Assembly: GCA_021786375.1 (NCBI GenBank)
Contig: JAJYNL010000019.1
Coordinates: 1-40,247, forward strand
From: Actinomycetes bacterium
GTDB taxonomy: Bacteria > Actinomycetota > Acidimicrobiia > Acidimicrobiales > Acidimicrobiaceae
DNA length: 40,247 nucleotides
Direction of reading: 5' to 3'
The first letter of the stretch is position 1, and each line of letters opens with the position of its first letter. The position numbers and the translations under genes were made by a program. This document shows, piece by piece, positions 2,589 through 16,616 of the stretch. Below the pieces are notes generated by a model. That model was not told the origin of the DNA. It did no database searches and was given only the letters and a program-made list of their open reading frames with translations.

Positions 2589-4538
2589 ATGGGAAAGCGC
2601 CTGATAAACATAGACAACGGCGGCACGCTGACGGATGTCTGCGTCGTGGACGGCGGAAGTATCACTCACGCCAAGACTCTGACCACTCCGTACGACCTGA
2701 GCCGTTGCCTCTTCGATGGCTTGACCAAAGCCTCGCAGCTCATCTACGGAGAGCCACAACTCGCTGCGCTGCTTCAATCGACCGACTACATCCGCTATTC
2801 GACCACCGAGGGAACCAACGCTTTGATCCAGCGGCAAGGACCCAGGTTGGGGCTCCTTACGAACTCGCCGCAACTCGCCGCTCGTATGAAGAGCGAGGGC
2901 ACCAACGCGGAGCTGTTCGACGCACTCGTCGGCGAAGGGGTCGTCACCTTGGATCTCGAGGTGGATGACGACTCGCTCTCCCAAACCCTCCTTACCGAGG
3001 TCAACAGGCTAGTAAGCAACGGCACCAACCGCCTGGTGGTCGCCTTCGACGGCCCTGAGGCGGGGCGTAGCGAACAGCGGGTGCAGCGGCTCATGCTCGC
3101 GCTGTATCCTCGGCATCTTCTCGGCTCGATACCGCTCTCTTTCTCGGCGGAAATGTTTGGCGCTGATCCCGATGATGCGAGACGCGCCTGGTCTACGGTG
3201 CTCAATGCCTTCTTGCATCCCGCGATGGAGCGCTTCCTTTTCAATGCCGAAGCTCGCCTGCGCGAGCATCGGACTCGCAGGCCACTGCTGATCTTCAGGA
3301 ATGACGGCGGCTCTTCACGAGTGGCCAAGTCCGCTGCAATCAAAAGCTACTCCTCTGGACCGCGCGGCGGCCTCGAGGGCACTAAGGCGCTCGCTCGTCA
3401 CTATGGGTTCGGCCAGGTGCTCATGGTCGACGTTGGGGGAACCACGACCGACATTGGCATTGTGAACGATGGCGAAGTGCGTATTGACCGCTACGGATCG
3501 GTAGAGGGCATAAGAGTCTCACTCCCTCTCGCCGCCATCACCAGCAGTGGTGTCGGAGGCAGCTCGGTATTCCAGGTGCTCGCCGGCGAAATCGAAGTTG
3601 GCCCAAGGAGCGTAGGCTCGGCTCCGGGACCTGCCTGTTTTGCCATGGGTGGTACCGATGCCACCATCACCGATGTGCTTCTGCTTGCCGGGGTCTTGGA
3701 TTCCTCCACCTTTCTCGACGGCACGATGACACTCGATGCGGCGCGGAGCAGAGCGGTGATCACGGAGAGGATCGCCGAGCCCTTGGGCATCGAGCTCCCG
3801 GCAGCCCTCGAGCGGATGGAAAGCGCTTTTACCGGCAGGCTCGCCCAAGCCGTTCTGGCTGCAGGCGAGATATCAGGTGATGCGGTCATCGCCGCTTTTG
3901 GCGGAGCGGGACCCATGCTGGCATGCGATGTCGCCAGGAAGGCGGGGATTCATAGGGTGCTGGTACCACGCTCCGCTGCGATCTTCAGCGCCTATGGCAT
4001 CGGCTTTTCCGACGTCACCCAGCACTACCAGATTTCTGTGGATGGTACCCGGAGGGATCCCGACCTAGCTGTGGATGCGGCATTGGCCGAGCTCGAGGAC
4101 AGAGCGCGCCGGGACATCTTCGCCGAGGGTATCGCCTTGGACGAATGTGCATTGACCTATCGCCTGGTACACGACGACGGCACCTCCTTCGAGGCCAGCG
4201 ATCCGGCGGTTCTCAAAACCCGCGAAATCGGAACGAGAGCGGTTCTTGAGCTATCGGTGGTATTCGAGCTTCCCCATGTCCGATTGGCCGACGCCTCTGA
4301 ATATCTCTCGCGCCAGGCGGTTCCGTCAGGCAATCGATCGGTACTGGACACCACGGCTGAATCCAGCGAGGCCGTCGTCTTGCCGGTTTTCGAAGTCGAG
4401 AACCTGGCCCCGGGGACTACCGGCGTCGGGCCGGCGATCATAGAAGGCCCGTTTTTCACTATGAAAATTCCCGCGGACTGGGACTTTGCCGCTACGGCGT
4501 CAGGGGATCTCTTGCTAACTGATCGAAGGAGCGCCTAA
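2589..4538 (+). CDS. HyuA/oxoprolinase-family subunit, ApcA (Apc1)-like ketone carboxylase
   Basis: This is a hydantoinase A/oxoprolinase-family protein of the ASKHA (actin-like ATPase) fold. The N-terminal hydantoinase motif is INIDNGGTLTDVCVV, where relatives carry IGGTFTD. The second phosphate-binding motif VDVGGTTTDIGIV lies near residue 282. SGVGGSSVFQV and PRSVGSAPGPACFAMGG follow near 320-355. ATG 2589 is chosen because GGAG lies just upstream and the protein then begins at the family motif; a GTG at 2523 would add 22 residues with no family look. The length is 649 residues (~70 kDa). Its stop codon overlaps the next start (TAATG). It is the first gene of a five-gene operon with the order HyuA, small zinc protein, HyuA, HyuB, ~30 kDa protein, as in acetophenone carboxylase. 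The probable role is ATP-dependent activation of substrate or bicarbonate. The changed first loop may mean weaker or different nucleotide binding. The actual ketone is not known. Confidence 0.8.
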   Translation: MGKRLINIDNGGTLTDVCVVDGGSITHAKTLTTPYDLSRCLFDGLTKASQLIYGEPQLAALLQSTDYIRYSTTEGTNALIQRQGPRLGLLTNSPQLAARMKSEGTNAELFDALVGEGVVTLDLEVDDDSLSQTLLTEVNRLVSNGTNRLVVAFDGPEAGRSEQRVQRLMLALYPRHLLGSIPLSFSAEMFGADPDDARRAWSTVLNAFLHPAMERFLFNAEARLREHRTRRPLLIFRNDGGSSRVAKSAAIKSYSSGPRGGLEGTKALARHYGFGQVLMVDVGGTTTDIGIVNDGEVRIDRYGSVEGIRVSLPLAAITSSGVGGSSVFQVLAGEIEVGPRSVGSAPGPACFAMGGTDATITDVLLLAGVLDSSTFLDGTMTLDAARSRAVITERIAEPLGIELPAALERMESAFTGRLAQAVLAAGEISGDAVIAAFGGAGPMLACDVARKAGIHRVLVPRSAAIFSAYGIGFSDVTQHYQISVDGTRRDPDLAVDAALAELEDRARRDIFAEGIALDECALTYRLVHDDGTSFEASDPAVLKTREIGTRAVLELSVVFELPHVRLADASEYLSRQAVPSGNRSVLDTTAESSEAVVLPVFEVENLAPGTTGVGPAIIEGPFFTMKIPADWDFAATASGDLLLTDRRSA

Positions 4539-4963
4539 TGCGTTTTGTTCCAATGACGGAGTATCTTCAGATCGATTTGGAGACCGAGAGGTGGCAGTGC
4601 CGTCGCTGTGGCCGTGAGATTGCCTCGGCGAGGGAGAACTACAAGACCGGGCTTCTTGTCTTCGATCGGGATCCCCGGGAGATACATCGCCCGCTCATTG
4701 ATCCGCAACGCTATGAGTTCACCTTCTCACCCGACCCGCAATGGTGCAGGATCGTCGAGTTCTACTGTCCGGGATGCGGAACCATGGTTGAGGTTGAATA
4801 CCTGCCCCCCGGCCACCCGCCCACCTACGACATGGAGATCGATATAGATGCGCTCCGCGCCCAGAAGGCCGGGCTGGATGACGACGCTGTCATTCCGCTT
4901 GGACGCGATCTCCCGGTGAACTTCAGCACTCAAGCGCATTCGAATTGGACGGGAGAGAGATGA
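4538..4963 (+). CDS. Small zinc-ribbon subunit, ApcB (Apc2)/acetone carboxylase gamma-like
   Basis: This 141-residue soluble protein has two CxxC pairs, Cys21/Cys24 (WQCRRCG) and Cys77/Cys80 (YCPGCG), which make a probable zinc site, plus a further Cys at 70. Size, cysteine layout and position between two large hydantoinase-type subunits match the small subunit of acetophenone carboxylase and the gamma subunit (AcxC) of acetone carboxylase. In that enzyme class the small subunit belongs to the core complex and is not catalytic alone. The start ATG overlaps the upstream stop by one base (TAATG), and the end overlaps the next gene by four bases (ATGA), so translation is probably coupled and subunit stoichiometry controlled. 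This subunit is what separates a ketone carboxylase from an ordinary hydantoinase or oxoprolinase pair. Confidence 0.75.
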   Translation: MRFVPMTEYLQIDLETERWQCRRCGREIASARENYKTGLLVFDRDPREIHRPLIDPQRYEFTFSPDPQWCRIVEFYCPGCGTMVEVEYLPPGHPPTYDMEIDIDALRAQKAGLDDDAVIPLGRDLPVNFSTQAHSNWTGER

Positions 4964-7113
4964 GGCGCATCTCGGTTGATATCGGAGGCACCTTTACCGA
5001 CTGCTTTGTCGCATGGGGCCAGGAATTTTTCCACAGCAAAGCTCTTACCACGCATCACAACCTCTCCATGGGGTTCAACCATGCCCTGGATCAGGCGTGC
5101 CAGAGTATAGGCAAGGACCGCCGGGAGGTGCTTGGCGAAGTCGACTCGGTGAGATACGCGACAACGCTGGGCACCAACGCCCTGATTGAGCGCAGCGGTC
5201 CCACAGTCGGTGTCTTGGTCACGGCCGGATTCGAAAGCGCGATTCCGCTTTCTCGTGGGCGTGGTTACGGTGAGGGCCTTGACGCGCTGGCCAAGAACGA
5301 TCTCTCCAGCGGCACGCGGCCCGATCCCCTTGTCCCGCCCCGCCTGATTCGCTCGCTGCGAGAGAGGGTGAGCTACTCAGGCGAGATCCTCATGGCGCTC
5401 TCGGCCGACGACGTTCGTCGCCAGCTGACGGGCCTCATAGACGCCGGTGCCCAAGCTTTGGTCGTCTCGCTCACCAACGCGACCGAGAACCCCGCTCATG
5501 AGCGTCTCGTCCAGGAGATCTTCCTGAGCGAGTATCCCGCGCATCAACTTGGGGCAATCCCGATGCTGCTGTCCCACCAGCTTTCGGGGCGCAAGGGCGA
5601 GTATGTGCGTACCACCACCACGATCATCGACGCTTATCTCCATTCGACGATGTATCACGCGCTCTCCGACCTTGAGCAGAATCTTCGAGCGAATGGCTAC
5701 GAGAAGCCCATGCTGGTTAACCACAACACGGGAGGGATGGCCCAGCTCAACTCCACAGATGCCCTTCAGACCATCCACAGTGGCCCGGTTGCCGGCATCG
5801 CCGCGAGCGAGCATCTTGCGGGTGAGGCCAAGATCGACAAGATCATCGCGACGGACATGGGCGGCACTAGCTTCGACATCGGATTGGTCACCGTCGGCGG
5901 CGGGAAGCACTACGACTTCATGCCGGTTATCGACCGCTGGCTGGTTTCAATACCCATGATTCGCATGGTGACCCTGGGCGCTGGTGGCGGATCGATCGCA
6001 AGCTACAACAGCTTGCACGATTCGGTGCAGGTGGGGCCGCGCAGCGCGGGTTCGGACCCCGGACCGGCATGCTATGACCGTGGTGGCCTCAGGCCTACCG
6101 TGACTGACGCAGACCTGCTGCTCGGCTATCTCGACCCTGCCCACTACGCGGGTGGGAAGATCCCGCTGAACCCGGGGAGAGCTCGCTTTGCCATAGAGGA
6201 GGCTTTCGGGGATTACCTCGATTTAGACCCTGTCGAGATCGCGCTGCTGATCAAGAGCGAAGTTGACGATCAGATGGCCAATGGTATGGGAATGGAGCTG
6301 CGTATCCGCGGGTATCTTCCCGAAGAGTTCACCATGCTCGCTTATGGGGGGAACGGTCCGTTGCACTGCTGCGGGATCGCCGATCGTCTGGGTATCACGC
6401 GGGTCCTCGCGCCCCCATACAGTTCGGTCTTCTCCGCGCTAGGCGCGGGCAACACCAACCAGATGCATATCCATGAGCGCACCATTGCGATCAACCTCTT
6501 CAGCTCCGCAACTCGCCAGCTGTTTGAGAACTTTGACCTCTTCAACTCCATCGTCGAAGAACTCGAGGCCAAGGGCACCGCTGATATCGTCCGCCAGGGA
6601 ATGGATCCTCTCAAGGTGGAACACCGCCTGGAGCTGGACATGCGGTATGGCAACCAACTGGTGACCCTGGCCGTGGTGCTTGACCGCAGCCGGCTGTACA
6701 CGGTTAGCGACACCCTGGCGATCGCCGATCTTTTCTCGCGAGAGTATGCACGCCGATACGGTGAAGGCAGCCAGTCTCCAGAGGCGGGAATCCGCATCTC
6801 CACTGTGCGGGTGGCATCGTTCATCCAGGGTAGATCCATAGAGTTCGGCGCTTTGGCCCCGACGGGTGAGCTCTCCCGGGCGATACCGGATGCGACCCGG
6901 ATGTGCCGGTTCCCCGGCTTTGCGGACCCGCTGGAGACCCCGATCTTTACGCAGAGCACGCTGGGACCAGACCAACGCATTGACGGTCCAGCCATCGTTA
7001 CAGCCGAGTCGACAACGTATCTGGTTGAGCCGTCCTGGCGCATGGAGACAGCTGACCGGGGAGCGGTCTGGTTCATCAAGAACAAGAATTCAGGAGTAGA
7101 GACCGATGACTAA
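4960..7113 (+). CDS. HyuA/oxoprolinase-family subunit, ApcC (Apc3)/acetone carboxylase beta-like
   Basis: This 717-residue protein is the second HyuA-like subunit of the operon. It keeps the canonical motifs: SVDIGGTFTDCFV at the N-terminus, ATDMGGTSFDIGLV near residue 306, LGAGGGSIASYN near 340, and VGPRSAGSDPGPACYDRGG near 360. ATG 4960 is preferred over the TTG at 4945. It overlaps the upstream stop as ATGA, has a purine-rich GGGAGAG upstream, and puts the family motif at residue 6. In acetone and acetophenone carboxylases the HyuA-type subunits bind ATP and phosphorylate the substrates. With its intact phosphate loops, this one is the better candidate for the active nucleotide site. It overlaps the downstream HyuB-like gene by eight bases. 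Alternatives are an N-methylhydantoinase or 5-oxoprolinase subunit, but the zinc-ribbon neighbour argues against both. Confidence 0.82.
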   Translation: MRRISVDIGGTFTDCFVAWGQEFFHSKALTTHHNLSMGFNHALDQACQSIGKDRREVLGEVDSVRYATTLGTNALIERSGPTVGVLVTAGFESAIPLSRGRGYGEGLDALAKNDLSSGTRPDPLVPPRLIRSLRERVSYSGEILMALSADDVRRQLTGLIDAGAQALVVSLTNATENPAHERLVQEIFLSEYPAHQLGAIPMLLSHQLSGRKGEYVRTTTTIIDAYLHSTMYHALSDLEQNLRANGYEKPMLVNHNTGGMAQLNSTDALQTIHSGPVAGIAASEHLAGEAKIDKIIATDMGGTSFDIGLVTVGGGKHYDFMPVIDRWLVSIPMIRMVTLGAGGGSIASYNSLHDSVQVGPRSAGSDPGPACYDRGGLRPTVTDADLLLGYLDPAHYAGGKIPLNPGRARFAIEEAFGDYLDLDPVEIALLIKSEVDDQMANGMGMELRIRGYLPEEFTMLAYGGNGPLHCCGIADRLGITRVLAPPYSSVFSALGAGNTNQMHIHERTIAINLFSSATRQLFENFDLFNSIVEELEAKGTADIVRQGMDPLKVEHRLELDMRYGNQLVTLAVVLDRSRLYTVSDTLAIADLFSREYARRYGEGSQSPEAGIRISTVRVASFIQGRSIEFGALAPTGELSRAIPDATRMCRFPGFADPLETPIFTQSTLGPDQRIDGPAIVTAESTTYLVEPSWRMETADRGAVWFIKNKNSGVETDD

Positions 7114-9388
7114 TGACCGCACGCCGTACTCGCCCGAAGAGCAGATCAAGGTCGATGAGTTCCTTGCAGGCGCCACGCTCTTTCTTGGACCGGACCCCGA
7201 GATCATGCGCGATCACAAGTCCGCGGCACGCACCCCGTTGGAAGAGGAGTTACTCTCCCGGCCAATCGACAGCGATGCCCTGGACAAAGTGCGCAAGCGG
7301 ATCGTCGCGGGTCTCGATGAGGCATACGAGATGATGGAGCAGACCGGGGCTGCGCCCGGTGCCAAGTGGGGTGATCTTACGAGCGCGGTCTACTCCGCGG
7401 GTGGAGACCTGGTGCACATCAGCTCGGGTGGCGTCTTGGCCTTCGCCTCAGTGCTGCACTACCCAGTTCGGTTCATCAATAAGTACTGGGCCCAAGAGCC
7501 TTCTGTGGGGATCCACGATGGCGACGCATTCATCCATAACGACGCTCGCTACGGCAACATCCACTGCACCGACCAGTCAATCATCATCCCCGTGTTTCAC
7601 GAGGGCGAGCTGATAGCCTGGGTCGCCACTGTGGTGCATGAGGGGGAGAACGGCGCAAAAGAGCCTGGCGGGATGCCCTCGAGCTCCGAGTCCGCCTTTG
7701 ACGACGGCTTGCGGATGCCGCCTTTCAAGATCTTCGAGCGCGGAGTACTCCGGCGAGACCTCCTCACTTTCCTGCAGAATTCGGTGCGGGAGCCCAAACT
7801 GCAGTATCAGGATTTGAAGGTCAAGTATTACGCGGCTCTGCGTATCAAAGAACGCGTATTGGCGGTGATCGACGAGGTAGGTCGCGACGCATTCATTGTC
7901 TCAATGCGTAAATCGCTTGAGGACGTTGAGGCTGAGGCCAGGCGACGCGTGAGCTTGATTCCGGATGGTACCTACCGGGTGAACCTCTGGTCGGACTCGA
8001 CCCTGCGCGAGAACGTCTTACTGAAGTACCCGTGCGCCATCACTATCCGCGGTGATCAGATGATCATTGATTGGCGGGGAGCTGCTCCACAATTTCTGAA
8101 CCGGGCGTTCAACTCGACTCTTGGGACTTCAAAATGCGGCATGAATCAGGGAATCCTCGCCTTTCTCTGGCCCGATCTTCCCCGGGGCATCTCGGTCATG
8201 AACAGTATCGAAGTGCTGACCGACACCGGGAGCTGCCTGGATCCCACTGACGATGCGCCCCTCGGCCAGAGTCTTCAAGGGGCATTCAAGGCATTCGCTA
8301 CGACTCAGGCGCTGTGGTCGAAGCTGACATTTAGCTGCCAGGAGAAATTCGGTGCGATCATCGCCCCGTGGTTCAACCAGATCAACACCTTCCTCTTCGG
8401 CGGCATTACCCAGCACCAGGAGTTTGTCGGAAATGTCTGTGCCGACCTCAACGGCATGGGAGGAGGCGCGAGAGCATATAGGGACGGCGAGCACTCCATG
8501 GCTCCCTTCTTCGCGGCCATGGCCGACATCGGCGAGCAGGAGATCATCGAAGAGGACGTGCCATTCATGCAGCTGATCTCAAAGAAGATCAAGCGCGACA
8601 ATCAAGGATTCGGGAAGTTTCGCGGGGGTATGGGCTACGAGATGGCGCTGGCGGCGAAGGACACACCCTTCTGGGGATTCGCTGCCGTTTCGAGTGGTTC
8701 GAAGTTCCCCGCCACTCCGGGGCTCTTTGGTGGATACGGTTGCCCAACCCTGCCTCTGGCCAAGATCAAGGGCGTCAATGTCTTCGAGCAGATGAAGAAT
8801 TCGCCGGAGAATTGGCAGTTCGACTTCGAGAGGCTTCTCAACGAGCAGCCGTTGCCCGGTGCGAAGTATTCCACCCACCATATGGGCATGGCACTGGAGC
8901 TTGCCAACGAGGGTGACATCTTCATGATGTGCCAAGGCTCGGGAGGTGGCTATGGCGACGTACTCGAGAGAGATCCAGCTGAGGTGATGGCCGATGTCGA
9001 AGCAGGGTACATCTCCAGCACTACCGCCCGGGAGATTTACTTCTGCGTTTTCGACGCCGATACCTTGGCGGTCGACAGCAGGGCAACGGAGGCGGCCCGG
9101 AATGCAGAACGCCGCGCGCGTCTAGAGCGTGGGCGTCCTTATGCGGAGTTCGTCGAAGACTGGGTTACCGAAGCTCCCCCCCAGACGGTTCCCTACTATG
9201 GCTCCTGGGGCGATGACAACTCGACAATTCATGCGACGGCCTGGGCAGCCACCGGTCCGATCAAGCTAGCCCTCCCGATGTCTCAGATGCCACCGATCAT
9301 GTTGCCCGACCCGAAGGACCTGGCGATCGCCGGGCTCCAGGCAGAGAACGAGGCCCTCCGGGCCGCTGCGAGTCGTGGCGATGCTTGA
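7106..9388 (+). CDS. HyuB-family subunit, ApcD (Apc4)/acetone carboxylase alpha-like
   Basis: This 760-residue hydantoinase B-type protein would be the large core subunit where ketone and carboxyphosphate, or another activated C1 species, meet. Visible family regions include GDLTSAVYSAGGDLVHISSGG near residue 90, VGIHDGDAFIHNDARYGNIHC near 135-155 (the typical HyuB GD-x(3)-ND pattern), and GSGGGYGDVLERDPAEV near 612. The length is close to that of the acetone carboxylase alpha subunit, and the HNDARYGNIHCTDQ stretch looks more like ketone carboxylases than oxoprolinases. It starts eight bases before the upstream gene ends and overlaps the next gene by 14 bases. The C-terminal tail (LQAENEALRAAA) looks like a short coiled coil. 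The carboxylase assignment rests on operon composition as well as on this sequence. Confidence 0.8.
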   Translation: MTNDRTPYSPEEQIKVDEFLAGATLFLGPDPEIMRDHKSAARTPLEEELLSRPIDSDALDKVRKRIVAGLDEAYEMMEQTGAAPGAKWGDLTSAVYSAGGDLVHISSGGVLAFASVLHYPVRFINKYWAQEPSVGIHDGDAFIHNDARYGNIHCTDQSIIIPVFHEGELIAWVATVVHEGENGAKEPGGMPSSSESAFDDGLRMPPFKIFERGVLRRDLLTFLQNSVREPKLQYQDLKVKYYAALRIKERVLAVIDEVGRDAFIVSMRKSLEDVEAEARRRVSLIPDGTYRVNLWSDSTLRENVLLKYPCAITIRGDQMIIDWRGAAPQFLNRAFNSTLGTSKCGMNQGILAFLWPDLPRGISVMNSIEVLTDTGSCLDPTDDAPLGQSLQGAFKAFATTQALWSKLTFSCQEKFGAIIAPWFNQINTFLFGGITQHQEFVGNVCADLNGMGGGARAYRDGEHSMAPFFAAMADIGEQEIIEEDVPFMQLISKKIKRDNQGFGKFRGGMGYEMALAAKDTPFWGFAAVSSGSKFPATPGLFGGYGCPTLPLAKIKGVNVFEQMKNSPENWQFDFERLLNEQPLPGAKYSTHHMGMALELANEGDIFMMCQGSGGGYGDVLERDPAEVMADVEAGYISSTTAREIYFCVFDADTLAVDSRATEAARNAERRARLERGRPYAEFVEDWVTEAPPQTVPYYGSWGDDNSTIHATAWAATGPIKLALPMSQMPPIMLPDPKDLAIAGLQAENEALRAAASRGDA

Positions 9389-10238
9389 AGAGCTCCGGAC
9401 GGAGCGCCTGCAGGATTCCCTCTGGGTCGACTCTCTTGGCTACTGTCAGGCAAAGGTCCTGCGCAGCGGGCCCGTACCGTGGGACAACCCAGCAAAGATA
9501 GGAGACTTCTTCGGCAAGATGGACGCCATCTTTGCGTCCGATGCGGTCCTGTTCGACGTGGGACGGGCCTACGCCGATATGACCGCGGCCCTACCTGCGG
9601 TGCGTCAAGCGATGGGAGCTCGCGATCGTCCGGGCTACCCGCTCAAGGTTCTCCTGGGCGAGAGCTCACTTAGAACTTGGGTTGTCGATGCCTTGATCGC
9701 CGTTGCCGCGATGGCCGTCGCGCGTGGTCGCGAGGTCGCAATTTGTGTTCCTTCGCCCCCCCGGTGGTTGCGCGAGGCGCGGATGCTGACCTCGGGCTCC
9801 TCTCCCTGCGATTCCCTCCTGAGCACAGAGGAACTCGAAGCTGCGGCTATCTATGTCGCCGACGGCTTACGCGGCTTTGCCGGATTGCGGATCGACGCCG
9901 TGGTGGTAGACGAAGGAGGGCGAACAGGCGAGACGATCGACTCTCTTGAAGCCTATCGAGCGATCTTTAACATCGCAGAGCATTACGGGTGGTCCGTTCT
10001 CCACAGGGCTGACCTTGATGCCTGCTGGCACCTTGACCCGGTCCACGGTGTCGCGGCATCGCTTGGCCGGTGCGCTCCATCGGCACAGGTGACGCGACCG
10101 TGGGGAATCGTCACCGCACTCGGCGCTTCGGCAGCGCTTTTGTCGAGCGGTGGGGCGCCGGCGGTAACGGTTGTACCTGGCGACGCCGACCCGGTTGACG
10201 TGACCAGGTGGATGTCGGCTCTTCGTTCAATGCGATAG
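9375..10238 (+). CDS. Fifth operon gene, ApcE (Apc5)-like ~30 kDa protein
   Basis: This 287-residue soluble protein starts with GTG 9375 or, two codons later, ATG 9381, inside the end of the HyuB-like gene. No catalytic motif is recognised. It has no signal peptide or membrane segment, and its middle (residues ~95-195) is rich in Ala, Val and Asp. Acetone carboxylase has only three subunits, whereas acetophenone carboxylase has a fifth ~34 kDa subunit that is needed for activity but detaches from the core. Position and size fit that subunit. The assignment is mainly by context and should be treated as provisional. Downstream lie 72 bases without an obvious terminator before the PucR-type gene. 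Confidence 0.55.
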   Translation: MAMLEELRTERLQDSLWVDSLGYCQAKVLRSGPVPWDNPAKIGDFFGKMDAIFASDAVLFDVGRAYADMTAALPAVRQAMGARDRPGYPLKVLLGESSLRTWVVDALIAVAAMAVARGREVAICVPSPPRWLREARMLTSGSSPCDSLLSTEELEAAAIYVADGLRGFAGLRIDAVVVDEGGRTGETIDSLEAYRAIFNIAEHYGWSVLHRADLDACWHLDPVHGVAASLGRCAPSAQVTRPWGIVTALGASAALLSSGGAPAVTVVPGDADPVDVTRWMSALRSMR

Positions 10239-10310: not shown

Positions 10311-11591
10311 GTGGATGAGAACCCAGATGTAGTGAGCGAGGCGACAAAGCTGTTGGCGCGGCGCCTCAACGATGATCTCGGCTCGGTATCGGCGTCGGTC
10401 AGCAAGGCGATCACCGACTCGATTCCCGAGCTGCAACTCGACCAGCGGCTGCAGGAGCTGATGCGCGCCAGCGTGGAGAGCAATGTTGAGAATATCGTGC
10501 ACATGCTTGCCCACGCCATCCCTGCAGAGCACATGGAGGCCCCCTCGGCGGCGATGGAGTATGCGCGGCGCCTTGCCCAGAACGGGATTCCGATTCATGC
10601 TCTCGTCCGGGCCTATCGGGTTGGACAACGCCAACTTCTTAAAGACTCGTTCGAGCAGATCGGCGCGCTCTATGGCGAACTCGACGCGTTGAGGATTTAT
10701 GAGAGCGTCGTCGTGCAGACGTTCTCATACATCGACTGGATATCCGAGACGATTATCATCACCTACCAAGAAGAGCGTGAGCAATGGCTTACTGATCAGC
10801 AAGTACGGCGCAGCAACACTGTGCGTCAGCTTCTAAAGGATCAGGCGACCAACGTTCCTGCGGCGGAGCGGCTTCTCAATTACAGGTTTGAGCAATGGCA
10901 TGTTGGTGCCGCGATTTGGACTGACGGGACCGATGAAGCCGAGCTTGGTGGGATAGAGCGAAGCGCCGCCGCCCTTGCCAGGCAGCTTTGCTGCTGCGGA
11001 GCTCCGCTCGTAATTGCACAGGACCGCTCCAACTCCTGGGCCTGGTTTCCCTTCGGTGCCAAAGAACCCAATCCGGCTTCATTTGCCGCAAGAATCCGAG
11101 GGTTAGGAATACCAATAAGAGTATCGCTGGGTTCCGCCCAATATGGATTCTCCGGATTCCGTGCCACCTTGCGTCAAGCCGAATGTACGCGCGAAGTGGC
11201 TCTGGCACTGGGTGAGTCGGCTTCCAAGGTGTTGACATACCCGGAAATTAGTTCGGTTGCCCTTCTCGTCCGGGATTTATCCTCCACGAAGGAATGGGTG
11301 GAGGCAACACTGGGGACGCTCGCAATCGATGACGAAAATCATGCGCGACTTCGTGAGACACTACGGGTATTTTTGGCGCATGGCTCGAGTTATACGGCGG
11401 CGGCCATTGAGCTGGCGCTCCACAAGAACTCGGTGAAATATCGAGTGGAGCGGGCCACTGCGGAACTTGGCCGCGGTCTCGATCGAGACCGTCTGGATAT
11501 CGAGCTCGCGTTGGCGGCGTGTCGCTGGCTGGGCAAGTCGGTCCTGCGTTCAGTGACACCGACGGCTGGTGTCAGAGTTGGTCCAGCCTGA
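10311..11591 (+). CDS. PucR/CdaR-type transcriptional regulator
   Basis: This 426-residue regulator starts with GTG 10311. The C-terminus carries the PucR helix-turn-helix (residues ~345-405), with the typical stretch FLAHGSSYTAAAIELALHKN followed by SVKYRVERA. The middle resembles the GGDEF-like domain of CdaR/PucR proteins, and the N-terminal ~150 residues resemble the all-helical RsbRD-type sensor domain (ALVRAYRVGQRQL). Such proteins usually activate an adjacent catabolic operon in response to a substrate or pathway intermediate. Here it follows the carboxylase operon on the same strand, so it probably controls that operon and the divergent CoA ligase. It could be co-transcribed with them; no clear promoter or terminator is seen in the 72-base gap. 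The ligand is unknown. Confidence 0.82.
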   Translation: MDENPDVVSEATKLLARRLNDDLGSVSASVSKAITDSIPELQLDQRLQELMRASVESNVENIVHMLAHAIPAEHMEAPSAAMEYARRLAQNGIPIHALVRAYRVGQRQLLKDSFEQIGALYGELDALRIYESVVVQTFSYIDWISETIIITYQEEREQWLTDQQVRRSNTVRQLLKDQATNVPAAERLLNYRFEQWHVGAAIWTDGTDEAELGGIERSAAALARQLCCCGAPLVIAQDRSNSWAWFPFGAKEPNPASFAARIRGLGIPIRVSLGSAQYGFSGFRATLRQAECTREVALALGESASKVLTYPEISSVALLVRDLSSTKEWVEATLGTLAIDDENHARLRETLRVFLAHGSSYTAAAIELALHKNSVKYRVERATAELGRGLDRDRLDIELALAACRWLGKSVLRSVTPTAGVRVGPA

Positions 11592-11862
11592 ACGCGAGGT
11601 AGGGACCGGGATAACGGAACCGGAGGTTTCCGGCGATGAAACCAAGTGCGGCGGGCCCGCGGCCATCCGCATAGTACTTGACCATCCTGACGGCGATCCT
11701 TCGGTCGATATCGACGACACCGTCGCCCGAGGCGGCCATGCACGTCGAAGAAGCGCCGGTGGTCAAAGGCGGAATACTCCAGGCGGCCCCAAACTTGGCC
11801 GGCAGTGGCGGAGCTTGTGCGAGTGCCGACTCGGAGGGAGAGCGAGTGTCCGTTCCTAATTG
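11572..11862 (-). pseudogene. Remnant of an unidentified gene with a frameshift
   Basis: Read on the minus strand, one frame gives LEYSAFDHRRFFDVHGRLG (about 11710-11770). A different frame then gives DIDRRIAVRMVKYYADGRGP, followed by AALGFIAGNLRFRYPGPYLA, to a TGA at 11572. Both segments look like real protein and read as one product across a frame change. There is no start in a consistent frame. It overlaps the 3' end of the PucR gene by about 20 bases in convergent orientation. The family was not recognised. Confidence 0.4.
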
Positions 11863-13059
11863 TCAGGGAGAGACATCTCCCCTCGGAGGCCGAGACGTTT
11901 CTCGTTTGCCGGCGAGAACAACGCCGGTTAACGATGCGCAACGCTCACGGAGCAGCTCCTGGTACATGCCGGGCCGGTGGTCTGCCGCCCGGAACACCTC
12001 GACGGCCAAGTCAGGCCGGTTAGCGACTTGCAGCGCCGATTCGGCCAGGACTTCCACCTCGCGCCAGTGATCGGTTCCGAGACGCGATGCCAGCTCCAGG
12101 TAGCGAGTAAGACGCCTGTTGGCTACGGCCAGCCACGCCAACTGCTCGAGTGCCTGATCGGCAGGGTAGTCGAGCTGGTATGTGCGGCACTCGTTCTCGA
12201 GTGCCTGTAATACGCTCTCGACAAGCTCGTCCTGTCCGGCCGGGAGGCGGCTCCACGGCAGTGTCTCCTCGTTGAACCCGAGGGCGTAGTCCTCGAAGAC
12301 GACCAGGTCGCATAGATCTTCCCAATAGTGTTGTGCCGTCATCCCGGCGGCCTGCCAGTCAATCGCGAGGTAGTTGTGCCAGGCTTCGCGCCGGATCTCG
12401 CCGATATTGCCAAAGGAGTCGTCGGCCCGGTCGGCGAGTTCCAGAGCGGCGGTGTGGAACGCACGGTAAAGGGCCAGCCGCTCGGCCGGCGGGAGTCCTT
12501 CCTTGTCGAGGGACTCGAGCCGATCTGCGATCCTTCGGACAGCGGAGAAGCTGCCACCCTCAGTGATGTGATGCTTCACCTCGACGTTGCGACGGAACGA
12601 GCGGTAATAGCGGTCCGGGTTCACCGGGAAGGCATTCCAGTGCCCGGTGCGTGACCGGCGCACCAGGCGGACCCGCGGCGTCTCGATCATCGCATGGCTC
12701 ATTGCACGGCCATCCAGATATTGCTCTGCCAACTTCTTGCGGGCCTTGGCGAGGAGACTCCGCGCCGCAAGCACCTCGGGGGTGACCAGGTTGCCCGGAA
12801 CCAGGCCGGCGTTTTCGAGTCGGACTCTTAGGTCGGCGAGGTGGCTGAGCTTCGACTCGGCGTCATCGCGACGCCGGGTGTGGTCCCGCATCTCTCCTAA
12901 GAGCCGCTCCTCCAGTTGGTGAAGGTCGGCGTCGTAGTCGGCGACCGCCACCACGCAGAACCAAAGGTCCCAGTGGCTCCAGATAAGTCCGCTGATTTCC
13001 TGCCATGGTTCCGGGCCGAAGATTGGCGGGCGGCGCGGCGGCAAGACCGTTTCGCTCAC
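11863..13059 (-). CDS. Conserved-looking hypothetical helical protein
   Basis: This 398-residue protein is not recognised. GTG 13059 is chosen because it overlaps the upstream stop as GTGA; the frame stays open further upstream, but that part is the shadow of the neighbouring gene. The composition is strongly helical and acidic. A charged, probably coiled-coil segment lies at ~30-70 (DLHQLEERLLGEMRDHTRRR), and the C-terminal third has TPR-like helical pairs (AESALQVANRPDLAVEVFRA). No signal peptide or membrane segment is present. Translational coupling to the pRiA4b ORF-3 domain gene suggests that the two products work together. No catalytic residues could be proposed. Confidence 0.7.
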   Translation of the reverse strand: MSETVLPPRRPPIFGPEPWQEISGLIWSHWDLWFCVVAVADYDADLHQLEERLLGEMRDHTRRRDDAESKLSHLADLRVRLENAGLVPGNLVTPEVLAARSLLAKARKKLAEQYLDGRAMSHAMIETPRVRLVRRSRTGHWNAFPVNPDRYYRSFRRNVEVKHHITEGGSFSAVRRIADRLESLDKEGLPPAERLALYRAFHTAALELADRADDSFGNIGEIRREAWHNYLAIDWQAAGMTAQHYWEDLCDLVVFEDYALGFNEETLPWSRLPAGQDELVESVLQALENECRTYQLDYPADQALEQLAWLAVANRRLTRYLELASRLGTDHWREVEVLAESALQVANRPDLAVEVFRAADHRPGMYQELLRERCASLTGVVLAGKRETSRPPRGDVSP

Positions 13060-13604
13060 GGCCGGTGCCTTGGGCTCTCGGGACCCCAATCGTACCGAAG
13101 CGGCGGCAGGTCTGCGAGCTTGGGATCCTTTGGTGGTGGCGACTCGCCGTTGTAACCGTACCATTGGCGCCGGTACTGGTCGGGAATGTCGCCCCATCCC
13201 CAGTAGGGTACGGGTCGCTTTGGAATAATCCCCAGGGCATCGACAGGATCGATTCGTTGGGGTCCGACGGTGCAAAGATGCGCCCAATCGTCACCGAGGT
13301 CGAATACGTATACGAACTGCTCGCCCGGTCGCAGGCGTGAGAGCCTGACGTGCTGCAAGTCCTCCGCCTTCTCGCCCTCGATCTCCCAATCAGGATTGGG
13401 AATGCACAGGCGGGTACCGTCCGCCAGCGTGAACTCCTGAAGGTGGGACCTGTCCCATCGGGCGAAGGCGCCGTCTATGGCATCAGCGAGCTGCTGGAAA
13501 GTGTGAGTGCGCGCGGCAGCGAAGATCCGGCCTGGGCGGGGCCAGAGGCACTCGCCGTGTCCCTCGACAAGATCGACCCGAACGGACAGCCACGTGCGTG
13601 CCAC
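13056..13604 (-). CDS. Plasmid pRiA4b ORF-3-like domain protein
   Basis: This 182-residue protein contains the pRiA4b ORF-3/IS1096-TnpR-like domain. It is recognised by the N-terminal strand-helix pattern with TFQQLADAIDGAFARWDRSH near residues 34-53, then FTLADGTRLCIPN, and the hallmark FVYVFDLGDDWAHLCTV at ~96-112. Proteins of this family occur on plasmids, beside mobile elements, and as small chromosomal genes. Their biochemical role is not established. No transposase or inverted repeats were seen next to it here, so it is annotated as a chromosomal cargo-type gene. It is first in a two-gene minus-strand operon with the unknown 398-residue gene, joined by a GTGA overlap. Confidence 0.8.
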   Translation of the reverse strand: MARTWLSVRVDLVEGHGECLWPRPGRIFAAARTHTFQQLADAIDGAFARWDRSHLQEFTLADGTRLCIPNPDWEIEGEKAEDLQHVRLSRLRPGEQFVYVFDLGDDWAHLCTVGPQRIDPVDALGIIPKRPVPYWGWGDIPDQYRRQWYGYNGESPPPKDPKLADLPPLRYDWGPESPRHRP

Positions 13605-14195
13605 CTACGTTCCCTCCTCTGGGAGACTTACCCGCTATTGTCCTGCCCCCAATTCATTGCTGGGGAGAGGTGCTCTATCCACCGCTGGGGCGAGCTTATC
13701 GGTCCGACGCCCGGCCGCGGGGGAGCGGGTTCAGCATCTCGCAAGGCTCCGGGGGGTGGACAGCGCTTGAGCGACGAAGTCCAGAAGGTTTCCAGGCCTG
13801 TTCACGGAGATATTCAAAACGGATCTTCGGTATTCGCGCACCGATCGGTTTCAACGTCGTAATTCCAGGGGCGATTGGCGCCAAAGCAAGCGGGGAACTG
13901 AGGCCGACCCGATCCCAGGGATGATCTCGAGGTAGCGTCAGGCGGTTGGCAGACGGAAAGGGCGGGGTGTAGGACTCCTCGGCCGCGTCAACCTTGTTGT
14001 CGCTACCTAAAAGCGGCGCAGTGCGCCGGCCATCCGGTGGCCCAACAAGTGGCACTCATCGAGTTGTGCCTCGAAGCGCTCCTGGTTGCGAACCCCTATC
14101 GGGGCAACCCTCAGGTCGCTGAACCACTCATCTCGCACCCACCGTACTTGGCGACGCGGCACTGGATCGTGGCAACCCAGTACCGGTGTACCTGG
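13605..14195. other. Intergenic stretch without a supported gene
   Basis: This must contain the promoter of the minus-strand pRiA4b operon. Open frames occur on both strands (for example 13696-14055 minus), but their composition is Arg/Pro-rich and no family is recognised. The right part may be the degraded 3' end of the pseudogene that follows; no convincing protein segment was found there. Confidence 0.4.
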
Positions 14196-14900
14196 TCGCA
14201 GCCTTGCGATTGCGACTGTGAAAAAGCCGCGGACACCGGGACCACCGAGGGCCGCGGGTTGAACGAGACGGAGTAAACCGGCCGATACTGTGCTTGGGGC
14301 CGACGGCGCGATCGGAGTTGAGCGAGGGAGGTGTTGTGCCCGGCACCGACGTGCTGGTCAGGATCCGGTCACCGCGGAACGAGATGGCATCCGTGCCCCA
14401 TTACGAGGGAGGGGGCTTAGGTCATAGGTACAGTGCCGCATCGAGCCCGAGCCGGGGTCCAGCGCATAAAGGCTGCAGTTGGCGTCCCCGTTGACCGTGG
14501 CGATCAGGCGCCCGCTCCCCGGGTCGCGGCTGAGCCCGTCGAGGTGATCGGCGATTTCCGGCTGGCCGAGAACCCGCGCACTAGGGCTGAGCCGACAACC
14601 GTGGTGAATGTGGTGCCATTGCCGGCTGGTTGGTCCTGCAGGCCGACACCGTTATGGAATGCCACGAATAGTTCGTATCCCAAGTAGGTGAGATCGTCCG
14701 GTCCGCTCAAAGGTTCCGTGAGCGCCGCACCGGCGGTTGCGAAGGTGTCCCGGCGGTCCCCGGCCAAACAAGCCAGGACGCAGACTTTTAGCCCGATCCC
14801 GGGGAATGGCGTCGGCCCCGGTGGCGCCGAGCGAGACCAGTGTCCAAACAGACCGAAACGGATGCCGCGCCCGGCGGAACAAAACCAATCTGAAGAGGCT
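14196..14900 (-). pseudogene. Frameshifted gene for a secreted-type (propeller-like) protein
   Basis: Protein-like segments follow one another on the minus strand but in changing frames. The order is TFATAGAALTEPLSGPDDLT plus YLGYELFVAFHNGVG (about 14660-14745), then a shift to LGQPEIADHLDGLSRDPGSG plus RLIATVNGDANCSLYAL (about 14465-14570). After that come YDLSPLPRNG, then GTDAISFRGDRILTSTSVPG (about 14340-14400), and VYSVSFNPRPSVVPVSAAF (about 14215-14280). The phrases 'DDLTYLGYELFVAFHNGVG' and 'DGL..DP.SGRLIATVN.DAN.SLY' are typical of a family of actinobacterial secreted proteins with repeated beta-strand units. At least three frame changes make it non-functional. Neighbouring genes are intact, so the shifts are probably real rather than sequencing error. 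Confidence 0.65.
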
Positions 14901-15039
14901 TGCAGCAAGGATTGATGACCGGGTGAACTCGCGATCGTCGTCCCTGCGTCATCACATAATTCGCCATTGCTGGTAGAATGGGCTTTGAGGCCTTCCAAAC
15001 GTCCGACATTCGGTTCGATGGCAGGGAGGCAGATCGGGG

Positions 15040-15381
15040 GTGTCCCCCATGTCTGGTAGATCATCAGCTTCTTCCAGTAAGTCCCGTTTGAACGAGCCGC
15101 CAGCCAGGATATTTACCCAGAAGGACGGTCCCAATGCCGTAACGGTGGGCCTGTTGTCCGTGGGTCTGGTCTTTGGAATAATCGGCTTGGCTGCGCACGC
15201 CTTCTGGGTCATTGCCGTCATCATCATGGCGCTGGGGCTTGGCTTTGCCGCAGTGAGCCGCCGACGGGACCATATCGATACGGCCATCGGGCGTGCAGAT
15301 GACGCCGAGGACAAGTGCGATTCGGCTCAAGTGTTGGCATCATCGGTTGGCATGGAGACGCGCGAATCGAGAAAGTCATGA
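15040..15381 (+). CDS. Small predicted membrane protein
   Basis: This 113-residue protein has a hydrophilic Ser/Lys-rich N-terminus and two membrane segments at ~35-52 (NAVTVGLLSVGLVFGIIGLA) and ~55-70 (FWVIAVIIMALGLGFAAV), followed by a charged tail. GTG 15040 is the likely start, with GGGAGG (15024-15029) 10 bases upstream. The alternative ATG 15049 would leave the ribosome-binding site too far away. A perfect GGGGG-TGT-CCCCC hairpin (15036-15048) sits on the start codon. The stop overlaps the next gene as ATGA. No function is known; it resembles short membrane proteins common in Actinobacteria. Confidence 0.6.
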   Translation: MSPMSGRSSASSSKSRLNEPPARIFTQKDGPNAVTVGLLSVGLVFGIIGLAAHAFWVIAVIIMALGLGFAAVSRRRDHIDTAIGRADDAEDKCDSAQVLASSVGMETRESRKS

Positions 15382-15761
15382 TCGTCATCATCGGCCTTGT
15401 AATCCTGATTATCGCCGTAGTCGTCGCCGTCGTCGGCGTATTGACCAATTCAGGAAGTGGGCACGCGCTTAATCATGGGTTCGCGGTATTCGGGTACCAT
15501 GTGACCGGGTCGACGGGCACCTTGTTCCTTTATGGCGTGGTGGTCGGGGCGGTCGCCCTCCTCGGCCTGTGCCTGCTCTTGGTCGGGGCGCGTCGGACAT
15601 CTCGCCGCGGAAAGTTGGCACGTCGTGGCCTAAGCCAGTCTCGCAGTCAGACCGCCGCTCTCAAGAAGGAACGGGATGATCTGATCGACCGGCACGATTC
15701 CATCAATCGTGACGCCACGGACGGGCCCGCCGCTCCTTCTCGGACGGCACCAGGGTCATAG
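15378..15761 (+). CDS. Small membrane protein with a basic cytoplasmic tail
   Basis: This 127-residue protein starts at ATG 15378, which overlaps the stop of the upstream gene (ATGA), so translation is probably coupled. It has two membrane helices: residues 1-22 (IVIIGLVILIIAVVVAVVGV) and ~49-70 (TLFLYGVVVGAVALLGLCLL). A tail of about 55 residues follows, rich in Arg, Lys and Ser (SRRGKLARRGLSQSRSQTAA), with a short charged helix (LKKERDDLIDRHD). It could serve as a membrane anchor or scaffold. Related actinobacterial proteins are known only as hypothetical membrane proteins. Confidence 0.6.
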   Translation: MIVIIGLVILIIAVVVAVVGVLTNSGSGHALNHGFAVFGYHVTGSTGTLFLYGVVVGAVALLGLCLLLVGARRTSRRGKLARRGLSQSRSQTAALKKERDDLIDRHDSINRDATDGPAAPSRTAPGS

Positions 15762-15925
15762 CGTCGGGTTAGCCCGCGTAGGGGGTTGCACTACCCCAGG
15801 CGAGTTCCAACTCAAGGGGAAGGGCTCGTCACATTGTAAGCAGTCGGGACCGCGCCTACTGGAGCGTGAGCCTTTGGTCCGGACTACTTGGGAGAAAAGT
15901 AAAAAAACGGTTTTGGGAGGCTTTT

Positions 15926-16081
15926 ATGATCATCCTCGGCGTAGTTCTTCTAGTCATCGGGTTCCTCACGGGTCTCGCTTTTGTCTGGTCGATTGGAATG
16001 GTCGTCCTGGTGATTGGCCTGGCCTTGTGGCTCCTCGGGGCACTTGGCCATGCCGTAGGGGGTCGGCGCCACTACTTCTAG
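15926..16081 (+). CDS. DUF6131-like small hydrophobic protein
   Basis: This 51-residue protein is almost entirely hydrophobic: IILGVVLLVIGFLTGLAFVW, a short turn, VVLVIGLALWLLGALGHAVG and the end GGRRHYF. The repeated LGxxLLxIG pattern and the GHAVGGRRHYF ending are typical of the small DUF6131-type proteins of Actinobacteria. ATG 15926 is supported by GGGAGG at 15915-15920, five bases upstream; the longer frame from 15866 has no such site. It would form a hairpin of two membrane helices. The function is unknown; relatives are often found near stress or cell-envelope genes. Confidence 0.65.
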   Translation: MIILGVVLLVIGFLTGLAFVWSIGMVVLVIGLALWLLGALGHAVGGRRHYF

Positions 16082-16290
16082 CGACCGGAAGTACCAACCG
16101 GTGTCGGCTGGGTGCAAATCCGCCGCTACCAGTTCCCTCGGGCCCCGGGGAAAGGCGCCTGGAGAAGGCTTCTGGTGCTCGTTCGTAAGGGCGCCACGCC
16201 AGCCGCTCGTGGAGGGGTTTGCAGTGCCTAGTAAAGAGAAGGTAATGGGAATGGTTCTATACGTGGTGATGACCACATCGGGCGGCGACC

Positions 16291-16458
16291 ATGCGCTTTG
16301 ATTTTGCGGCCCAGGGGCACGGTTTCAGGGTTCGTATTTCCGCCGTCAATCTGGTGATCGTAGGGGCTGTCGGCGCTGCCCTATCGATTGCGTACTGGGC
16401 CCGGTGGAGCGGATCCGGCCGATTCGGATTCCATAAGCATCCAAATGCCGGTGTTTAG
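16291..16458 (+). CDS. Possible 55-residue membrane protein
   Basis: A short frame from ATG 16291 to TAG 16458 encodes one hydrophobic segment, VRISAVNLVIVGAVGAALSI, followed by the basic-aromatic stop AYWARWSG. The 'RISAVxLIxxGAxxA' start resembles short actinobacterial membrane proteins. The ribosome-binding site is weak (GGGCGG), so it may not be expressed. It lies among other small membrane protein genes on the same strand, which slightly supports it. Confidence 0.3.
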   Translation: MRFDFAAQGHGFRVRISAVNLVIVGAVGAALSIAYWARWSGSGRFGFHKHPNAGV

Positions 16459-16616
16459 CCGATGTCGGGGGTGACGGCAAGGGAGAGGATCCAGTCTCGC
16501 CACGATGCTCAGTTGTCCACACAAGGAATTTGTTGGTTTGTGATCGCCGTGGGCCTAGCTGTTTTGGCGCAAGCTGCAACGGACAGGGCTCTCGTTTGCA
16601 TAGGGAGATGTCAGTG

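What the first reader, a model, noticed from the sequence alone, without database searches (positions are those of the whole stretch)
2589..10238. Five-gene acetophenone-carboxylase-like operon in an actinobacterium
Five overlapping genes have the composition and order of apc1-5: HyuA-like, CxxC/CxxC small protein, HyuA-like, HyuB-like, ~30 kDa protein. Acetone carboxylase has only three subunits, and hydantoinases/oxoprolinases have no zinc-ribbon subunit. Acetophenone carboxylase was characterised in the denitrifying proteobacterium Aromatoleum; a complete set with its own PucR regulator in an apparently different phylum could be a new ketone carboxylase with a different substrate. Seen directly: motifs, overlaps, order. 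Inferred: the carboxylase activity and the ketone.
Basis: partly seen in the sequence, partly recalled or inferred. Interest (0 to 1): 0.75.

Follow-up and report, generated by a model that had tools for sequence, protein, structure and literature searches.

The report
Five-subunit ATP-driven ketone carboxylase operon
This bacterium carries a complete five-gene set for an enzyme that very probably uses ATP to add CO2 to a still unidentified ketone; such sets turn out to occur in several bacterial phyla, and their puzzling fifth subunit is built like a haem-pathway decarboxylase.

Summary
Observation confirmed: five overlapping genes (2589-10238, +) encode HyuA-like, Zn-ribbon, HyuA-like, HyuB-like and ~30 kDa proteins. 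Nearest solved relatives of the first four are the acetophenone carboxylase (Apc) subunits. Trees put the large subunits with Apc, apart from the few acetone-carboxylase and hydantoinase-type references used. It is not acetophenone carboxylase itself: 30-36% identity in the large subunits, far below equivalog cut-offs, in a separate clade with a different ketone-pocket signature. The clade spans at least five phyla, and actinobacterial apc sets were already in print. Neighbours in part of the clade (alcohol dehydrogenase, CoA ligase or 3-oxoacid CoA-transferase, thiolase) point to ketone -> 3-oxoacid -> CoA ester -> thiolysis; here a CoA ligase is divergent. New here, as far as found: epsilon of this clade has a uroporphyrinogen-decarboxylase fold and, where missing locally, was found elsewhere in 16 of 18 genomes. 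Substrate and activity are untested. New member of a known kind; moderate interest.

The parts
2589..4538 (+). alpha-prime (ApcA-like) ASKHA kinase subunit, proposed bicarbonate kinase, 649 aa
   Evidence: Best PDB chain 5l9w ApcA, 3.5e-80; in a 28-row clade, 100 SH-aLRT; ATP motifs DNGGTLTD at 9 and DVGGTTTD at 281
4538..4963 (+). gamma (ApcB-like) Zn-ribbon subunit, 141 aa, C21/C24/C77/C80
   Evidence: Pfam Acetone_carb_G 2.8e-39; 5l9w 6.9e-39; cysteines invariant in the 9 aligned sequences
4960..7113 (+). alpha (ApcC-like) ASKHA kinase subunit, proposed ketone kinase, 717 aa
   Evidence: 5l9w 2.2e-143; 27-row clade, 100; RERVSYSG at 134, pocket T72/I272/H273/R335
7106..9388 (+). beta (ApcD-like) HyuB-type subunit with conserved metal-site residues D90/H153/D156/H178, 760 aa
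   Evidence: 5l9w 1.4e-84; 23-row clade, 100; the four residues invariant in 75 of 75 clade members
9375..10238 (+). epsilon (ApcE-like) UroD-fold subunit, 287 aa, GTG start (ATG at 9381 possible)
   Evidence: AF2 pLDDT 84.6, pTM 0.86; Foldseek best hit 9fou ApcE, E 6.6e-7; Z 17.3 over 252 residues
953..2425 (-). divergent acyl-CoA ligase (FadD/PRK06187-like), proposed 3-oxoacid-CoA ligase, 490 aa
   Evidence: AMP-binding 5.8e-91; best NCBIfam PRK06187, 455.6 bits against a cut-off of 476; 72% identical neighbour of the operon in a same-genus genome (L015)
10311..11591 (+). PucR-type regulator, 426 aa; link to the operon by position only
   Evidence: HTH_30 and GGDEF_2; no match in the 80 related loci

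Best explanation
The five genes encode an ATP-dependent, biotin-free ketone carboxylase of the Apc branch (alpha alpha' beta gamma core plus epsilon), in a clade distinct from acetophenone carboxylase. Shown by sequence or predicted fold: all five subunit types in Apc order, both ATP-site motif sets, the metal-site residues in beta, the Zn-ribbon cysteines in gamma, and an ApcE/UroD fold for epsilon. Inferred: alpha (4960-7113) phosphorylates the ketone enolate; alpha' (2589-4538) makes carboxyphosphate; epsilon docks to bring or channel the activated CO2; C-C bond formation takes place near the metal site of beta; the 3-oxoacid product is activated to its CoA ester by the divergent ligase (953-2425) and split by a thiolase encoded elsewhere. 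The ketone is unknown and probably not acetophenone.
For: 5l9w is the best solved relative of four subunits. Epsilon fold matches 9fou, and a second family member 14% identical to it gives the same kind of result. Two trees, one holding alpha and alpha' and one beta. Alpha keeps DIGGTFTD and DMGGTSFD and an RERxxxxG stretch like the fingerprint that marks alpha. Beta D90/H153/D156/H178 align with E86/H147/D150/H172 of an acetone-carboxylase-type protein, which I equate, by a constant offset of 3, with the Mn ligands Glu89, His150, Asp153, His175 (passages of PMC5543143). In 80 clade loci: activating enzyme (ligase or CoA-transferase) 32, thiolase 32, alcohol dehydrogenase/SDR 29; the three CoA-transferase proteins tested, from two loci, are of 3-oxoacid type above NCBIfam cut-off. 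Own genome has 7 thiolase matches over cut-off.
Against: No activity data for any member of this clade are known to me. The beta metal-site residues also occur in the own hydantoinase-type HyuB, so they do not prove carboxylation. NCBIfam scores are far under the Apc equivalog cut-offs. Alpha' differs from Apc at two of three named substrate-site residues (E248 to S, K281 to D). Neighbour counts have no background control; 17 of 80 loci show none of the searched partners. In this window the thiolase is not adjacent, and the ligase is of a broad FadD-like type.
Confidence: 0.73

Rival explanations
1. It is a genuine acetophenone (or hydroxyacetophenone) carboxylase that has diverged in sequence but kept the substrate.
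For: Same five-subunit composition and order; nearest solved structure is Apc. A Nevskiales and a Solimonas locus of the clade carry DUF1329 and YCF48-type genes; ORFs that I take by eye, not by a search, for YCF48- and MMPL-like also lie beside the A. aromaticum operon.
Against: 31/36/30% identity of A/C/D to A. aromaticum versus up to 53/64/57% to clade members outside the genus; pocket residues L81 and N282 replaced by T and H in 79 of 79, F281 by I or V in 77 of 79. Hydroxyacetophenones have a different, biotin-dependent route in Rhodococcus (PMC9618137, abstract). A. aromaticum Apc is described as highly specific (PMC4729919, passages).
Confidence: 0.1
2. Nested within the best explanation: the ketone is short and aliphatic (acetone, butanone or a similar methyl ketone), giving acetoacetate or a homologue.
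For: Nine actinobacterial or Bacillota loci of the clade place CoA-transferase A/B right after epsilon on the same strand (9 of 11 transferase loci), some with a thiolase of acetyl-CoA acetyltransferase type (L051) or a Zn-alcohol dehydrogenase (L046).
Against: The window has a FadD-like ligase instead of the transferase, and its genus carries Arg at a pocket position that is His or Tyr in 78 of 79 relatives, so its substrate may differ from theirs. The matched models (pcaI_scoA, pcaJ_scoB) by their names also cover 3-oxoadipate transferases.
Confidence: 0.35
3. It is an ATP-dependent cyclic amidohydrolase (hydantoinase, oxoprolinase or lactamase) that acquired extra subunits.
For: HyuA/HyuB families; NCBIfam caprolactamase models also match; the metal-site residues are shared with the own HyuB.
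Against: Hyd enzymes have only alpha and beta (PMC5214803); here alpha' and epsilon are kept beside the core in 75 and 61 of 80 loci found through gamma. Beta groups with Apc beta at 99 SH-aLRT, apart from the two-gene sets. Partner genes tested are 3-oxoacid/thiolase type.
Confidence: 0.07

Closest known systems
Acetophenone carboxylase ApcABCDE of Aromatoleum aromaticum EbN1 (PDB 5l9w core, 9fou epsilon)
   Same: Five subunit types, gene order, ATP-site motifs, gamma cysteines, beta metal-site residues, epsilon fold; a CoA ligase gene close by
   Different: 30-36% identity in large subunits, below equivalog cut-offs, separate clade, different ketone-pocket residues; epsilon alike only by fold and a marginal profile score; the ligase is divergent instead of downstream; PucR instead of the two-component systems described in PMC4729919
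Five-gene apc-like sets such as Rhodococcus jostii RHA1 pRHL2 RHA1_RS41495-41475 (annotated as hydantoinase family, acetone carboxylase gamma and hypothetical protein)
   Same: Same clade in the alpha, alpha' and beta parts of the trees; A/C/D identity 52/63/57%; fifth gene is homologous
   Different: Regulator type and neighbours; Arg335 in the window genus against His
Acetone carboxylase Acx (PDB 5svb, 5m45)
   Same: alpha-, beta- and gamma-type homologues; beta metal ligands
   Different: Acx has three subunits and no alpha' or epsilon; more distant in sequence
Hydantoinase / 5-oxoprolinase / caprolactamase (PDB 6yra, 7hk5)
   Same: HyuA/HyuB families and ATP site
   Different: Two subunit types, no gamma; the two-gene sets used as references fall outside the Apc branch
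Uroporphyrinogen decarboxylase (fold of epsilon only)
   Same: Epsilon model aligns at Z 17.6 over 266 residues
   Different: 8-15% identity over the listed UroD chains; no Pfam URO-D match for any of 58 clade members at E<=1; decarboxylase activity not implied

Membership tests
Apc-branch five-subunit ketone carboxylase | gene order apcA-B-C-D(-E) | tested here: met
   criterion from PMC5214803
Apc-branch five-subunit ketone carboxylase | Large subunits on the Apc branch, not with Acx or Hyd | tested here: met
   Beta: 32-row Apc branch at 99. Alpha: Apc-type grouping at 81, under the 95 mark; alpha' with ApcA at 88. Only one Acx-type and three Hyd-type references, quick trees
Apc-branch five-subunit ketone carboxylase | Two ATP sites (PHOSPHATE1, PHOSPHATE2, ADENOSINE motifs) in alpha and alpha' | tested here: met
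   DIGGTFTD/DMGGTSFD/GSDPGP in alpha, DNGGTLTD/DVGGTTTD/GSAPGP in alpha' (GxxPGP read by eye)
Apc-branch five-subunit ketone carboxylase | Alpha fingerprint R/KERiDsxG, absent from alpha' | tested here: met
   RERVSYSG at 134 of alpha, none found in alpha'; the i, D and s positions vary
Apc-branch five-subunit ketone carboxylase | Four gamma cysteines | tested here: met
   C21, C24, C77, C80 invariant in 9 of 9 aligned sequences
Apc-branch five-subunit ketone carboxylase | Epsilon with the fold of ApcE | tested here: met
   Foldseek 9fou E 6.6e-7; Z 17.3, rmsd 3.9 over 252
Apc-branch five-subunit ketone carboxylase | Subunit lengths (beta about 670 in Apc, about 720 in Acx) | tested here: inconclusive
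   Beta is 760 aa, closer to Acx (776 in 5svb, 5m45); gamma 141 is closer to Apc (129) than Acx (168)
Apc-branch five-subunit ketone carboxylase | ATP- and bicarbonate-dependent, biotin-free ketone carboxylation | not testable with these tools
   Needs an enzyme assay
Acetophenone carboxylase (strict) | NCBIfam equivalog scores over cut-off | tested here: not met
   ApcA 328/1250, ApcB 146/250, ApcC 498/1500, ApcD 321/1500
Acetophenone carboxylase (strict) | Pocket residues L81, F281, N282, Q344, T345 of Apc alpha | tested here: not met
   T72, I272, H273, R335, M336; P285 and I333 are kept; rests on a sequence alignment, and the paper calls the pocket assignment tentative
Acetone carboxylase Acx | Three subunits, order acxABC, gamma last | tested here: not met
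   Five genes, gamma second
Hydantoinase/oxoprolinase | Two subunits only | tested here: not met
Uroporphyrinogen decarboxylase (epsilon) | Pfam URO-D profile match | tested here: not met
   0 of 58 clade epsilons at E<=1; of three A. aromaticum-type epsilons tested, two match weakly (8e-5, 0.0068), below cut-off

The most novel reading that the evidence does not exclude
The clade is a phylum-spanning class of ketone carboxylases for a substrate other than acetophenone, and its obligatory epsilon subunit is a repurposed uroporphyrinogen-decarboxylase barrel that takes part in chemistry (holding or delivering CO2 or carboxyphosphate to the beta metal site), in effect a decarboxylase scaffold used in the carboxylating direction; one epsilon may serve several core sets in trans in Nevskiales.
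Probability: 0.17. Interest if true: 0.75.

Novelty: new member of a known kind. Interest (0 to 1): 0.4.

Why it matters
As of 2017 only one Apc-type carboxylase was characterised (PMC5214803), and the role of its epsilon subunit was left open there. The window belongs to a large clade, uncharacterised as far as I found, with a conserved pocket of its own, so a second substrate could be sought in ordinary laboratory strains such as R. jostii RHA1. That epsilon is kept across the clade, shares the 9fou/UroD fold and is sometimes encoded far from the core makes its role directly testable. It also bears on annotation: these sets are filed as 'hydantoinase/oxoprolinase family protein' and 'acetone carboxylase subunit gamma' with a 'hypothetical protein' in the three plasmid records looked at.

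Tried and rejected
Sequence searches for the fifth protein gave nothing: no credible Pfam or NCBIfam family, no credible PDB sequence match for it alone or as a 58-row profile; hhalign of its family against four A. aromaticum-type epsilons was weak (probability 7.8, E 0.0044). Fold comparison settled it.

The first profile search for epsilon was iterated and could have drawn in its own hits; I repeated it with a profile of the 58 members of A3 only, with reversed decoys. That is the result quoted.

I first read the 19 of 80 loci without a local epsilon as loss; whole-genome searches showed epsilon elsewhere in 16 of 18 genomes, so loss is rejected for those. The two misses (genomes of L038 and L045) are 2.3-2.5 Mb MAGs whose contigs here end before the fifth gene's place. 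Likewise the four full-flank loci without alpha' lie in genomes that have it elsewhere.

Substrate from the literature: searches for acetone carboxylase with Rhodococcus, hydantoinase/methyl ketone terms and acetophenone with uroporphyrinogen decarboxylase listed no paper that by title or abstract describes this clade or the UroD fold of ApcE. The library lacks most subscription papers, the supplement of PMC5214803 with its trees was not seen, and 9fou may be described in a paper not held. Composition: operon GC 0.606 against 0.629 for the window, GC3 of the five genes 0.68-0.74 against 0.80-0.83 for polA, rpsA and uvrB, but 0.74 in an ice-binding-like gene nearby: suggestive of an accessory origin, not proof. 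Fold matches to other TIM barrels are background.
Full report
OBSERVATION. Five + strand genes lie at 2589-4538, 4538-4963, 4960-7113, 7106-9388 and 9375-10238, each overlapping the next. Pfam names genes 1 and 3 Hydantoinase_A, gene 2 Acetone carboxylase gamma (2.8e-39), gene 4 Hydantoinase_B, and finds nothing credible in gene 5. The best solved relatives of genes 1-4 are in each case subunits of acetophenone carboxylase, PDB 5l9w (3.5e-80, 6.9e-39, 2.2e-143, 1.4e-84), ahead of acetone carboxylase and hydantoinase/oxoprolinase chains where these were listed. The order is that of apcABCDE (PMC5214803, parts 1-3 of 5 of the text read).

THE FIFTH GENE. No sequence search placed it. Homologues stand at the fifth place of many related loci; 57 of them from named records plus the window protein made alignment A3. 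AlphaFold2 on A3 gave pLDDT 84.6, pTM 0.86. Among 350,542 PDB chains Foldseek's best hit is 9fou, the Apc epsilon subunit (E 6.6e-7, 12% identity); VIA-align gives Z 17.3, rmsd 3.9 A over 252 residues, tied with uroporphyrinogen decarboxylases (up to Z 17.6). A replicate with the divergent homologue of a deltaproteobacterial MAG (14% identical to the window protein; pLDDT 95.5) again puts UroD and 9fou on top (9fou E 7.8e-5 behind two UroD chains at 7.4e-5; Z 17.4 over 241 against up to 18.2 for UroD). A profile of A3 alone was searched against the ORFs of the loci held and their reversals. Next after clade members come L019 5e-6, L119 7e-6, L103 5.4e-4, L116 and L117 0.003-0.004, L113 0.016, L020 0.021, L114 (A. 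aromaticum) 0.053 and L018 0.075; eight of these nine lie inside or directly beside another apc-type cluster, and L020's about 4 kb upstream of one. Then come an ORF without such a link that I know of (L066, 0.16) and the first reversed decoy (0.18); another A. aromaticum-type epsilon (L115) falls below that at 1.5. Pfam URO-D matches two of three A. aromaticum-type epsilons weakly (8e-5, 0.0068) and an archaeal one over cut-off (3e-13), but none of the 58 members of A3 at E<=1. So the protein is Apc epsilon by fold, and epsilon as a whole looks like a diverged UroD-like barrel. I found no paper saying so (listings of an open-access library); 9fou itself was released in December 2025, so its authors will know the fold.

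PLACE IN THE FAMILY. NCBIfam's Apc equivalog models are the best hits but far under cut-off (328/1250, 146/250, 498/1500, 321/1500). Identity to A. aromaticum is 31/55/36/30% for A/B/C/D. One scan of GTDB genomes found 303 relatives of the small subunit; the best 80 were kept, so the set leans to close relatives of the window. For the comparison I dropped three same-genus contigs (L024-L026; a fourth, L038, stayed in), L035 (no C subunit on its contig) and L103 (C only 41% identical), and added five loci (L110-L112, L118, L120), which gives 80: A in 75, B 80 (the search query), C 80 (a condition of entry), D 77, E 61, many contigs being cut. Quick trees (SH-aLRT only) put the window in one clade for alpha' (28 rows, 100), alpha (27 rows, 100) and beta (23 rows, 100), each holding Actinomycetota, Pseudomonadota, Bacillota, Verrucomicrobiota and Myxococcota. 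A. aromaticum Apc is a separate clade. Apc-type rows and this clade stand together apart from an acetone-carboxylase-type set and three two-gene hydantoinase-type sets: 99 for beta, 81 for alpha (under the 95 mark), 88 for alpha' with ApcA. Deep branches are long, some alpha'-type rows of other sets fall elsewhere with weak support, and references are few, so the deep order is open. In an even sample of the phylum 21 of 396 genomes match the small subunit, 9 of them (own included) above 120 bits; among 60 relatives 8 match, own included and one (G016) only weakly. Within the genus, 4 of 12 genomes have B and 3 of 12 have E: accessory, as far as incomplete MAGs can tell.

RESIDUES. Both kinase subunits keep the ATP motifs; alpha has an RERxxxxG stretch where Apc alpha has its fingerprint and alpha' lacks it (criteria). 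Of the residues that PMC5214803 names around the ketone pocket, L81 is T in 79 of 79 clade members, N282 is H in 79 of 79, F281 is I or V in 77 of 79, Q344 is H or Y in 78 of 79, T345 is L in 79 of 79, while P285 (79 of 79) and I333 (78 of 79) are kept. The window and two same-genus copies have R at the Q344 position (R335 in the window), and the window has M336 where all 79 have L. At the proposed bicarbonate site D274 is kept, E248 is S or G and K281 is D (73 of 73). Beta D90/H153/D156/H178 are invariant (75 of 75) and align with the Apc mercury/zinc site and with E/H/D/H of an acetone-carboxylase-type protein, which I equate by a constant offset of 3 with the Mn ligands named in PMC5543143 (passages); they are also present in the own hydantoinase-type HyuB, so they mark the beta fold, not carboxylation. 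These mappings rest on sequence alignment.

PATHWAY. Near the clade's operons I find an acid-activating enzyme in 32 of 80 loci, thiolase in 32, alcohol dehydrogenase or SDR in 29, both activation and thiolase in 17, a Fis-type, sigma-54-activator-like regulator in 33, CobW in 7, and none of these in 17. Genes were counted by similarity to a few representatives, there was no background control, and contig ends lower the counts. In 9 of 11 loci with a CoA-transferase it follows E on the same strand (computed overlaps of up to 1,041 nt I put down to longest-ORF calling); the three proteins tested, from two loci, are 3-oxoacid CoA-transferase subunits above cut-off. Ligases beside E in Sulfobacillus and a Bacillales MAG have the same best NCBIfam model, PRK06187, as the window's divergent ligase, all three just under its cut-off; that ligase also stands beside the operon in a same-genus genome at 72% identity. 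This is the gene set expected for secondary alcohol -> ketone -> 3-oxoacid -> CoA ester -> thiolysis. The own genome has seven thiolase matches over cut-off and a CoA-transferase pair beside one of them on another contig.

EPSILON IS KEPT. 19 of 80 loci lack a local epsilon. Their 18 genomes were searched (two Panacagrimonas loci share a genome by title): epsilon is found elsewhere in 16; the two misses are 2.3-2.5 Mb MAGs with the contig ending before that place. Of 62 loci with full flanks, 52 have A and E, 6 A without E, 4 neither, none E without A; all 10 without E have it elsewhere in the genome, and the genomes of the four without A have A elsewhere. In Hydrocarboniphaga effusa the only epsilon found is about 240 kb from the core operon, and in H. 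daqingensis about 425 kb. PMC5214803 noted that some operons lack the fifth gene; in this clade that need not mean the genome lacks it.

MECHANISM. Best reading: alpha makes the enol phosphate of the ketone, alpha' makes carboxyphosphate, epsilon closes or channels the 50 A gap, and carboxylation takes place near the beta metal; the ligase then activates the 3-oxoacid. The kinase assignment and the epsilon role follow the proposal of PMC5214803, the metal role that for acetone carboxylase; both are inference here. The conserved epsilon positions are largely hydrophobic, aromatic, Pro or Trp, with P268 the only invariant one, though some polar ones (such as N199, H203, R166, D19) are kept in 48-50 of 58; this favours docking over catalysis without excluding the latter. 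The substrate is open: the transferase/thiolase neighbours favour a short methyl ketone for some relatives, but the window's ligase and Arg335 leave room for another ketone. Acetophenone is unlikely.

NOVELTY. Actinobacterial apc-like sets are in print (Rubrobacter, PMC5214803; Rhodococcus ruber, PMC6498646, passages; Paraconexibacter, PMC11737030, passage). This is a new member of a known kind, in a clade that no paper I found describes as such. A demonstrated new substrate would make the clade a new variant.

Noticed in passing
L022:2721-4928 (G027:C33): A HyuB-type protein of 735 aa with a weak gamma-like (Zn-ribbon) match in the same frame near its C-terminus, next to a HyuA: possibly a two-gene set with the gamma domain fused.
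   Followed up: no
L113:6928-14519: A haloarchaeal plasmid (Haloterrigena) carries an Apc-branch set with a protein annotated as UroD family between the ApcA-like and ApcB-like genes; its alpha and beta group with A. aromaticum Apc at 99.
   Followed up: partly
window:16530-18379: Ice-binding-like protein (PF11999) followed directly by a sortase (PF04203).
   Followed up: no
window:1-950 and 11592-16500: Both flanks of the ligase-operon-regulator block have no Pfam match in the ORFs tested there; operon GC3 is lower than in three housekeeping genes of the window. Possibly an inserted accessory block.
   Followed up: partly
G494:C1:3399565-3399912: A gamma-like gene with two in-frame TGA codons in another genome of the phylum: decayed gene or recoding, not examined.
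   Followed up: no
L040, L041, L053, L060, L082, L112, L118: A CobW-type GTPase (a metal-chaperone family, by recall) lies near the clade's operon in 7 of 80 loci, which would fit a metal site in beta.
   Followed up: no
window:18975-19868, 38285-39094: Two TauE/SafE-type transporters in the same window, one beside a DUF1634 protein.
   Followed up: no
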